Positions 25,741 through 60,618 of a DNA stretch of 64,000 nt are shown piece after piece. The notes beneath the pieces were generated by a model. That model saw only the letters and a program-made list of their open reading frames with translations, was not told the origin of the DNA and ran no database searches. Both the position numbers and the translations under genes were made by a program. This stretch comes from Leptotrichia hongkongensis (GTDB taxonomy: Bacteria; Fusobacteriota; Fusobacteriia; Fusobacteriales; Leptotrichiaceae). The stretch's first letter is position 1. Each line of letters begins with the position of its first letter. Location: the NCBI RefSeq assembly GCF_007990635.1, contig NZ_AP019846.1, forward strand, positions 248,001-312,000, in the 5' to 3' direction.

Positions 25741-25829
25741 TAAAAATGAAAATTATATTTTAATTATCTGAAAATATTAGTTTAATATACTTTAATTAGA
25801 AAGGTTTGTAATAAATTCGTTATTTAAAT
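25741..25829. repeat. Second dispersed repeat, copy 2
   Basis: Aligns with 21811-21898 over its full length with roughly one change in seven bases (estimated by eye). Confidence 0.6.
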
Positions 25830-49680: not shown

Positions 49681-49721
49681 TTTAGCGTTGGTGAGAGAAA
49701 AAATTCTCTCCCAACGCTAAA
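49681..49721. repeat. 41-bp near-perfect palindrome
   Basis: TTTAGCGTTGG (T bulge) GAGAGAA / TTCTCTC CCAACGCTAAA: 18 base pairs with a three-base loop. There is no long T-run on either side. It may end an RNA made from the minus strand (next entry), or act as a roadblock or protein-binding site. Confidence 0.7.
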
Positions 49722-49751
49722 TTTATTTACTGTAAGTCATGTTTAAACAAT

Positions 49752-50010
49752 GTTAAAAAAATATAAATAAAAAAGTTGCTTTATATTTAACAGTCTACAC
49801 ATTATAACTAAAGTAATCCCGCAACCCAACCTCGATATTACTAATTAACATATGGTAGTAACATTTACAATGATTCGTACTGATGTAACAATACTGGGAT
49901 TAATCGTAATTATTGTAACTTCCCCGCATTACGTCATTTTGTAGGATATTTTTTTCCTAATATCCAGAGGCTTATGTTCACCTTAATAATATCTACGCCC
50001 AAAATTTATT
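49752..50010 (-). ncRNA. Candidate structured non-coding RNA, class unknown
   Basis: About 260 bases without a reading frame, less AT-rich than neighbouring gaps, with several nested pairings: GGATATT / AATATCC (49943-49965), CGTAAT / ATTACG, TAATCCC / GGGATTA closing an 80-base multibranch region, TTACTA / TAGTAA and TTACA / TGTAA. On the minus strand a long-range stem GTTGC / GCAAC is followed by TTTTTTATTTATATTTTTTT, like a terminator, which favours that strand. No signature of tmRNA, RNase P RNA, SRP RNA or a familiar riboswitch was recognised; 6S RNA can be neither supported nor excluded. It lies downstream of the DIP1984-family gene. Confidence 0.45.
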
Positions 50011-50078
50011 GTGAATTTTCTAATTAAAGAATATAAACTTAATATTTTTAAATAGAATTTAGTATAAGTTATATTTTT

Positions 50079-50537
50079 CTATTCTTCAATCAAATCAATA
50101 GTCCAGTTTGCCTGCTGTAATTTTGTATCAGTTTCACGAATTTCCTTAGACAGTTTATCTAGCTGCTTTTGCTGTGCTGGAACATTAATCGTACTAAAAA
50201 CCTTTATTTCTGTTGAGGAATAAAGATTTATCTTTTGGCTTGCAATTTCTATAAATTCACGCAGAATCCCTGCTTTTTGTGAAAGAGTGTCTTTTTTTGC
50301 AATTAGTTCAACTAATGAAATCCCATTAATTTTTGAAAGAGTATTTGTTTTGTTTATTTTTATTATTAAATCATTTAGCTGGGAAATCAAGTCATCTAAT
50401 TCAGTTAATAAAAATTCGGGATTTTCGGTAGGTTCTTCATTTTCTTGAACTTTAGCATTATTATTAAGTCTTGTTTTTAACTGTGAAATTCTTTTTTGAA
50501 TATCGGCACGTAAAATAAGAGCTTCAGCGATTTTCAT
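50079..50537 (-). CDS. DIP1984 family protein (septicolysin-like)
   Basis: 152-residue soluble, helical protein of the DIP1984 family, whose function is not established. The family start MKIAEALILRADIQKRISQL, the NNAKVQENEEPTENP segment and the DLIIKINKTNT stretch are all recognisable. No signal peptide or membrane segment. The ribosome site TGGAGG precedes the ATG. It is divergent from the pyruvate dehydrogenase operon with a 260-bp AT-rich promoter region between. Confidence 0.85.
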   Translation of the reverse strand: MKIAEALILRADIQKRISQLKTRLNNNAKVQENEEPTENPEFLLTELDDLISQLNDLIIKINKTNTLSKINGISLVELIAKKDTLSQKAGILREFIEIASQKINLYSSTEIKVFSTINVPAQQKQLDKLSKEIRETDTKLQQANWTIDLIEE

Positions 50538-60421: not shown

Positions 60422-60464
60422 AATACATATTGATTTGTGACACATAAATCATATAAATAATAAC

Positions 60465-60601
60465 CAAAGACAGTAGGTAGAATGAAAGTTCTTTAAACCC
60501 TACCGAGGTAAATATTATTACAAATAGATATTAGAATAATAGATATTTTTATAGTATGATACCTCTGGGCTTATTGTTTTTGTTTCAGAGGCTTTTTATT
60601 A
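60465..60601 (+). promoter_or_regulatory. Ribosomal protein L10 leader with attenuator
   Basis: Leader RNA between the rplA terminator and rplJ. A GTAGGTAG / CTACCG region is followed by GAGGTA, which can pair with TACCTC; further on, CCTCTG / CAGAGG with a T-rich tail (60562-60598) looks like a terminator. This matches the known L10-leader layout, in which L10(L12)4 binding controls rplJ-rplL. Confidence 0.8.
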
Positions 60602-60618
60602 TAAGGAGGTGAAACAAA

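What the first reader, a model, noticed from the sequence alone, without database searches (positions are those of the whole stretch)
49722..50045. Candidate novel structured RNA near asnA
A frame-free stretch with higher GC than other gaps has at least five mutually compatible stems, including a multibranch closed by TAATCCC / GGGATTA, and on the minus strand a GTTGC / GCAAC stem followed by a T-rich tract. I could not match it to tmRNA, RNase P, SRP or a familiar riboswitch. It stands alone, so it would act in trans or be a missed housekeeping RNA such as 6S.
Basis: partly seen in the sequence, partly recalled or inferred. Interest (0 to 1): 0.62.

Follow-up and report, generated by a model that had tools for sequence, protein, structure and literature searches.

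The report
Uncatalogued bacterial RNA paired with DIP1984
The odd stretch near asnA is one copy of a structured RNA of about 190 bases that is in no RNA database and that nearly always sits directly behind the gene for one small protein of unknown function (DIP1984/DUF6847) across at least nine bacterial phyla, which suggests that the two work together as an undescribed RNA-protein partnership.

Summary
A structured RNA is there, on the minus strand (about 50000 to 49815). It does not stand alone. It lies 78 nt behind a DIP1984-family gene (DUF6847, 50079-50537 minus). It is not 6S, SRP RNA or tmRNA, which all sit elsewhere in this genome, and it matches no Rfam family. The same RNA follows DIP1984 genes in at least nine phyla. 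A covariance model built only from 29 non-fusobacterial copies finds the window copy at E=3e-11 and gives one hit, at the expected place, in each of 96 DIP1984 loci. Helices P1, P1b, P2, P3 and a pseudoknot have strong compensatory changes (95.6% of cells paired; covariation score 0.63 against 0.21 shuffled and at most 0.08 slid). RNA and gene co-occur genome by genome: 17/17 against 0/81 in Fusobacteriota, 18 of 20 in an independent family. The RNA usually starts 7-12 nt after the stop codon and is often followed by a terminator, so it is probably the 3' part of the DIP1984 transcript. Best reading: a trans-acting RNA partner of DIP1984, an RNP. Its function is unknown. Sporadic linkage to rtcB/rtcA and a tRNA T-arm-like hairpin hint at RNA repair or surveillance, but this genome has no RtcB.

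The parts
49815..50000 (-). DIP1984-associated RNA, core of about 186 nt (5' GGGCGUAG ... GCGGGAUU 3'); covariance-model match at 49818-49997
   Evidence: R1, built without any fusobacterial sequence, 48.9 bits, E=3.1e-11; conserved block in 13 relatives
49983..49992 (-). P1 closing helix, 5' strand AUAUUAUUAA
   Evidence: C-G/U-A double change in L010, UUAUUAAAA/UUUUAAUAA in genus g6, UUUAUCAG/CUGAUAAA in Fusobacterium
49835..49844 (-). P1 closing helix, 3' strand UUAGUAAUAU
   Evidence: as above; coordinates verified
49973..49978 (-). P1b, 5' strand AACAUA
   Evidence: AGUAC/GUACU in g6 (3 double-changed pairs); four pairs with 31-41 double-changed sequences each over 93 distinct sequences
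49847..49852 (-). P1b, 3' strand UAUGUU
   Evidence: as above
49959..49965 (-). P2 hairpin, 5' strand GGAUAUU
   Evidence: only part of the family has this exact form
49944..49950 (-). P2 hairpin, 3' strand AAUAUCC
49968..49970 (-). proposed pseudoknot PKa, CCU (partner AGG 49956-49958); UCUC/GAGA, ACCC/GGGU in other phyla
   Evidence: sequence reading; the PKa pairs have some double changes across phyla; in the window it rests on 3 pairs, so weak here
49915..49932 (-). P3 hairpin GUAAU-GCGGGGAA-GUUAC
   Evidence: 5 pairs, 100% paired in 13 relatives; 5/5 pairs with double changes across phyla
49921..49924 (-). pseudoknot PKb, P3-loop strand GGGA
   Evidence: 4/4 pairs with double changes across phyla, found de novo by mutual information
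49896..49899 (-). pseudoknot PKb, 3' strand UCCC
   Evidence: as above
49818..49833 (-). conserved purine-rich 3' tail GAGGUUGGGUUGCGGG (family consensus GAGGGYGGGnnnGGGG)
   Evidence: invariant GAGGG.GG..GGG in A6; absent from the Acinetobacter variant
50079..50537 (-). DIP1984/DUF6847 family gene (152 aa), the constant upstream partner
   Evidence: PF20935 E=2.7e-48, NF038048 E=3.3e-51, PDB 3kdq E=9.8e-26 and fold match TM 0.91

Best explanation
The element is a member of an uncatalogued, widespread family of structured noncoding RNAs (about 155-210 nt) encoded directly behind DIP1984-family genes. SHOWN by sequence: the family, its secondary structure with at least one pseudoknot, its position, its genome-by-genome coupling to the gene, and shared history with the protein. 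INFERRED: DIP1984 and the RNA are made from one transcription unit (ORF, RNA, terminator), the RNA survives as a stable molecule, and the all-helical DIP1984 protein binds it to form an RNP that acts in trans. SPECULATIVE: the RNP handles damaged or structured RNA, as Ro60/Rsr with Y RNA does, because it sits in or beside rtcB in several unrelated bacteria and about half of the scanned copies carry a tRNA T-arm-like hairpin.
For: Model from 29 non-fusobacterial RNAs: one hit in each of 96 DIP1984 loci, window included, and also after DIP1984 genes on plasmids of Mycobacterium 7.6e-15, Paracoccus 2.5e-12, Streptomyces 6.3e-12 and Picosynechococcus 1.2e-9. Covariation; found de novo. Coupling: Fusobacteriota, gene in 17/98 genomes, RNA in 16 of these by genome search and in the 17th at its locus, in 0/81 without the gene. 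Independent family of 149 genomes: RNA 20, gene 20, overlap 18 (Fisher p=5e-19); one of the two gene-only genomes ends its contig 17 nt after the gene. Gap from stop to RNA: median 11 nt; RNA and protein distances correlate (Mantel r=0.73, 0/999 permutations). Terminators within 100 nt after the RNA in 22/79 loci against 0.4 expected. For action in trans: downstream genes differ between lineages; a GNAT-like gene lies between protein gene and RNA in G226 yet the RNA is kept; G146 carries two diverged tandem RNAs. RNA-repair link: rtcB-hyp-DIP1984-RNA-rtcA in an Acinetobacter contig; rtcB near DIP1984 in L088, L118, L136, L152 and about 4 kb away in Fusobacterium G046.
Against: No expression data and no binding data. 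Adjacency and co-inheritance would also arise from a 3' UTR element that regulates only its own mRNA. The genome of the window and all other genomes of its genus searched lack RtcB, RtcB is absent from 7 of 20 other DIP1984 genomes or records, and in Fusobacteriota RtcB does not track DIP1984, so an RtcB-dependent role cannot be general. G220 has a divergent DIP1984 gene with no RNA behind it. The DIP1984 fold resembles no known RNA-binding protein.
Confidence: 0.62

Rival explanations
1. Cis-acting 3' UTR element: the RNA stays part of the DIP1984 mRNA and controls its stability, termination or translation, perhaps bound by DIP1984 itself as autoregulation.
For: RNA starts 7-12 nt after the stop codon in most loci, is followed by terminators and is never far from the gene.
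Against: Structure is far more elaborate than known 3' UTR stabilisers; tandem diverged copies in G146; a gene inserted between ORF and RNA in G226; RNA kept in the window with a 78-nt gap that holds a dispersed repeat.
Confidence: 0.22
2. Two-part selfish or defence module: DIP1984 is a toxin or effector and the RNA its antitoxin or sensor (type III toxin-antitoxin-like), kept by plasmids and moved by horizontal transfer.
For: Patchy distribution; 371 plasmid records, mostly Acinetobacter; some copies near toxin-antitoxin genes.
Against: No ToxI-like tandem repeats; no nuclease or toxin family match (PADLOC only E=0.0094); clade-wide retention in most of the genus; almost absent from viral contigs and phages.
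Confidence: 0.1
3. Riboswitch or leader for the downstream gene (sstT in the relatives).
For: In nine relatives sstT follows the RNA, eight of them closely; in some Ruminococcus-like loci a start codon follows within 10-20 nt.
Against: Downstream genes differ between lineages; in the window the next gene is convergent; terminators often follow the RNA.
Confidence: 0.04
4. DNA-level element (recombination or replication site) rather than RNA.
For: Conserved inverted segments, intergenic.
Against: Many G-U pairs in the covarying helices and pseudoknot topology, one orientation relative to the gene in all loci.
Confidence: 0.01

Closest known systems
Bacterial Y RNA (YrlA) with Ro60/Rsr in rsr-yrlBA-rtcBA RNA-repair operons (PMC7790460)
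   Same: A noncoding RNA with a tRNA-like element encoded next to one dedicated protein gene, sometimes in the same operon as rtcB/rtcA
   Different: No Rfam match; different secondary structure; the partner is DIP1984 (PF20935), not a Ro60 protein; most loci have no rtc genes, and this genome has no RtcB
raiA, OLE, ROOL, GOLLD (large bacterial ncRNAs of unknown or partly known role)
   Same: Complex conserved noncoding RNA; OLE and raiA have preferred gene neighbours (own knowledge)
   Different: No Rfam hit for any of them at the element in the window, eight relatives or 20 loci of other phyla
Type III toxin-antitoxin (ToxIN)
   Same: RNA plus small protein as a compact, sometimes plasmid-borne pair
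   Different: No tandem RNA repeats upstream of the gene, RNA lies downstream, no toxin-family match
3' UTR-derived bacterial sRNAs
   Same: Position directly after a stop codon and before a terminator
   Different: Highly structured and conserved over at least nine phyla, whereas known 3' UTR sRNAs are lineage-restricted (own knowledge)
6S, SRP RNA, tmRNA
   Same: Stable structured RNAs of similar size class
   Different: Each found elsewhere in this genome

Membership tests
6S RNA (RF00013) | Covariance-model match; usually one copy per genome | tested here: not met
   No match at the locus; genuine 6S at C1:1864478-1864680
SRP RNA (RF00169) | Covariance-model match | tested here: not met
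   Own copy elsewhere, C1:600338
tmRNA (RF00023) | Covariance-model match, tag ORF | tested here: not met
   Own copy elsewhere, C1:62778
Any of 4227 Rfam 15 families | Score at gathering threshold | tested here: not met
   Window, relatives and many loci of other phyla
DIP1984-associated RNA (defined here) | Covariance match over the full model | tested here: met
   E=3.1e-11, model positions 1-187
DIP1984-associated RNA (defined here) | P1, P1b, P3 and PKb with compensatory changes | tested here: met
   P3 in the close relatives varies only by one-sided G-U changes
DIP1984-associated RNA (defined here) | Directly downstream of a DIP1984/DUF6847 gene, same strand | tested here: met
   78 nt downstream
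DIP1984-associated RNA (defined here) | T-arm-like hairpin between P3 and PKb (about half of loci) | tested here: not met
   Absent in the window by reading; 41 of 79 loci have it, so not obligatory
Bacterial Y RNA with Ro60 | Rfam Y RNA-like match | tested here: not met
Bacterial Y RNA with Ro60 | Adjacent Ro60/TROVE-domain gene | tested here: not met
   In the window the adjacent gene is PF20935; neighbours of the 80 loci were clustered, not all annotated
Bacterial Y RNA with Ro60 | RtcB present in the genome (frequent context, not strictly defining) | tested here: not met
   0 in this genome and genus; present and adjacent in some other lineages
Type III toxin-antitoxin | Tandem-repeat RNA antitoxin upstream of a toxin endonuclease | tested here: not met
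   Single RNA downstream; no toxin-family match
RNP | Direct RNA-protein binding | not testable with these tools
   Needs pull-down or gel shift

The most novel reading that the evidence does not exclude
DIP1984 and its RNA are an ancient, mobile, domain-wide ribonucleoprotein with a previously unrecognised cellular role (for example RNA surveillance or repair), whose RNA moiety has escaped every RNA catalogue.
Probability: 0.55. Interest if true: 0.93.

Novelty: categorically new. Interest (0 to 1): 0.87.

Why it matters
Few noncoding RNAs are spread over many bacterial phyla; most of those known (tmRNA, RNase P, SRP RNA, 6S) proved central to cell biology. This one has strong covariation evidence, a defined partner with a solved but unexplained structure (3kdq), and no entry in Rfam. 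It gives a protein family of unknown function a concrete biochemical hypothesis and makes it directly testable. It also occurs on clinical Acinetobacter and Enterococcus plasmids, where the Acinetobacter gene has been annotated as 'septicolysin', a name with no support from the family matches here.

Tried and rejected
Minimum-free-energy folding gave no signal on either strand. RNAalifold on 13 close relatives suggested AAGGU/ACCUU and TAATCCC/tail pairings, dropped when distant homologues showed P1b and PKb instead. A leader-of-sstT reading, suggested by the first relatives, was dropped when the constant neighbour proved to be DIP1984. A general RtcB-dependent role was dropped as a requirement because this genus has no RtcB. 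Viral contigs gave one weak relative without a convincing RNA. Fold search with the AlphaFold model found only 3kdq. Literature: DIP1984, DUF6847, PF20935 and 3KDQ give no paper about function; the structured-RNA surveys PMC11109978 (which includes Leptotrichia buccalis), PMC8632094 and PMC8040213 showed no such motif in the passages searched in their main texts. Their supplementary motif lists could not be read, so an unnamed earlier listing cannot be excluded. A 2016 paper by Burroughs and Aravind on RNA-repair gene neighbourhoods, cited in PMC7790460, could not be found in the library under the identifier tried.

Full report
WHAT WAS CHECKED. The finding pointed to 49722-50045 as a possible structured RNA near asnA. 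Rfam at curated thresholds finds only a tRNA and an L10 leader in the whole window, and nothing convincing at the locus even with permissive filters. Folding energies are those of shuffled sequence on both strands, so stems seen by eye prove nothing here. Comparative evidence decides the case.

RELATIVES. A DNA search of 60 related genomes found a block of about 210 bases, on the minus strand of the window, at 85-89% identity in 9 other genomes of the same genus and 69-76% in 3 genomes of a second genus. Downstream genes differ (sstT, named by eye, in nine relatives; a convergent asnA in the window; other genes elsewhere), but the upstream gene on the same strand is always the same. It is a 152-aa DIP1984-family protein: PF20935 DUF6847, NCBIfam NF038048, with a solved but functionally unexplained relative, 3kdq. 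Housekeeping RNAs are accounted for elsewhere in this genome: 6S, SRP RNA, tmRNA.

FROM GENUS TO DOMAIN. In three Fusobacteriaceae-like genomes with the gene, the same core follows it with different but complementary stem sequences, for example UUUAUCAG/CUGAUAAA for the window's AUAUUAUUAA/UUAGUAAUAU. A scan of GTDB genomes with a protein alignment found 278 relatives of DIP1984; the best 80 were kept. Behind nearly every one lies the same RNA, with consensus GGUAG-P1-GGGUGG-P1b-AUGAUCUC-P2-GAGAAUG-P2'-P3-CGGGCG-P3'-(often a T-arm-like GGGUUCGANUCCC hairpin)-AUGCCCAGUA-UGUUACA-...-UUACUACC-P1b'-RRCUG-P1'-GAGGGCGGGnnCGGGG. Record titles and the plasmid hits place it in Fusobacteriota, Bacillota, Pseudomonadota, Desulfobacterota, Spirochaetota, Bacteroidota, Chloroflexota, Cyanobacteriota and Actinomycetota; several of these rest on metagenome-assembled genomes, where misbinning is possible.

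COVARIANCE MODEL. A model was built from 29 of these RNAs, none of them fusobacterial. Searched over 96 loci it gave 96 matches, one per locus, the window at 49818-49997 minus with E=3.1e-11. It also finds the RNA behind DIP1984 genes on plasmids of Mycobacterium, Paracoccus, Streptomyces and Picosynechococcus. The weakest hits (E 0.001-0.05: L056, L125, L109, L172) and the divergent Acinetobacter form (E 0.06-2.5) are at the right place but would not stand on score alone.

COVARIATION. On the 29-sequence seed, 95.0% of cells are paired, 28 of 30 pairs show changes on both sides, and the covariation score is 0.556 against 0.241 shuffled and at most 0.134 slid. On 93 distinct sequences, with two pseudoknots written in, the figures are 95.6%, 35 of 37, and 0.633 against 0.207 and at most 0.083. 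That alignment was fitted to the model's nested stems, but not to the pseudoknots. Mutual information without a given structure ranks P1, P1b, P2 and P3 first and recovers pseudoknot PKb, P3 loop to AUGCCCAG. In the plain alignment of the window with its 12 nearest relatives the window's own pairs hold at 96.8%, with 8 double-changed pairs against 3.4 shuffled and 0-1 slid.

COUPLING TO THE PROTEIN. In Fusobacteriota the gene is in 17 of 98 genomes. The RNA is in 16 of these by strict genome search, in the seventeenth (G019) by locus search (E=0.0013) and by reading, and in none of the 81 others. In 149 genomes of an unrelated family the gene is in 20 and the RNA in 20, with 18 in common, always with the RNA after the gene (Fisher p=5e-19). 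Of the two gene-only genomes, one contig ends 17 nt after the gene (G197) and one truly lacks the RNA (G220). The two RNA-only hits are partial and weak. Relatedness among genomes makes these p-values optimistic. RNA and protein distances correlate over 79 loci (Mantel r=0.73).

ANATOMY AND MECHANISM. The RNA begins a median of 11 nt after the stop codon, and an intrinsic terminator follows within 100 nt in 22 of 79 loci against 0.4 expected. So ORF, RNA and terminator most likely form one transcription unit. Three observations argue for an RNA that acts as a molecule in its own right: downstream genes have nothing in common across lineages; G226 has a gene inserted between ORF and RNA and keeps the RNA; G146 has two diverged tandem RNAs. 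The simplest mechanism is that DIP1984 binds its neighbour RNA and the complex acts in trans. This is inference; no expression or binding data were available.

FUNCTION. A hint comes from RNA repair. In an Acinetobacter contig the order is rtcB, an unnamed ORF, DIP1984, RNA, rtcA. RtcB lies within 3 kb of DIP1984 in four of the 80 scanned loci and about 4 kb away in a Fusobacterium. Salmonella rtcBA operons carry Ro60 and Y RNAs, one of them with a tRNA-like domain (PMC7790460), and 41 of 79 of the present RNAs carry a T-arm-like hairpin. Yet the window's genome and its whole genus lack RtcB, and RtcB is absent from 7 of 20 other DIP1984 genomes or records. The link is therefore a lead, not a general mechanism.

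NOVELTY. No Rfam family matches window, relatives or loci of other phyla at the element. No paper in the held library discusses DIP1984 or DUF6847 function, and the large structured-RNA surveys showed no such motif in the main-text passages searched. Supplementary lists could not be read. The rating 'categorically new' refers to the RNA family and its pairing with this protein; RNA-protein partnerships as such are of course known.

Noticed in passing
window 50003-50045 (other copies in this genome include C1:181462, 224497, 2182609, 17336 and window 25774-25817): A small dispersed repeat (at least 43 bp, about 80-86% identical copies in this genome, also in other genomes of the genus) sits between DIP1984 and its RNA in this strain and widens the gap from about 33 to 78 nt.
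   Followed up: partly
window 49683-49725: Long near-perfect hairpin (TAGCGTTGG-GAGAGAA...TTCTCTC-CCAACGCTA) between convergent asnA and the RNA, perhaps a bidirectional terminator.
   Followed up: no
L002-L010 downstream of the RNA: sstT (Ser/Thr symporter-like, named by eye) follows the RNA in nine relatives but is missing at this place in the window.
   Followed up: partly
L106, L124, L140, L147, L148, L161: A gene resembling microbial poly(ADP-ribose) glycohydrolase (by eye) ends 16-17 nt before DIP1984, a probable operon in Ruminococcus-like genomes.
   Followed up: no
L191 (G146): Two tandem, diverged copies of the RNA behind one DIP1984 gene.
   Followed up: partly
L174 (record CAKLQH020000004.1): A 232-kb contig labelled Acinetobacter phage carries rtcB, rtcA, rbn and pepD and looks chromosomal, so the phage label is probably wrong.
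   Followed up: no
L085 (Mailhella MAG): DIP1984 is 75% identical to the Fusobacterium protein and the RNA is of the Fusobacterium type; probably a misbinned contig.
   Followed up: no
window 60446-60606: Ribosomal protein L10 leader above Rfam threshold (53.3 bits), a known element.
   Followed up: no
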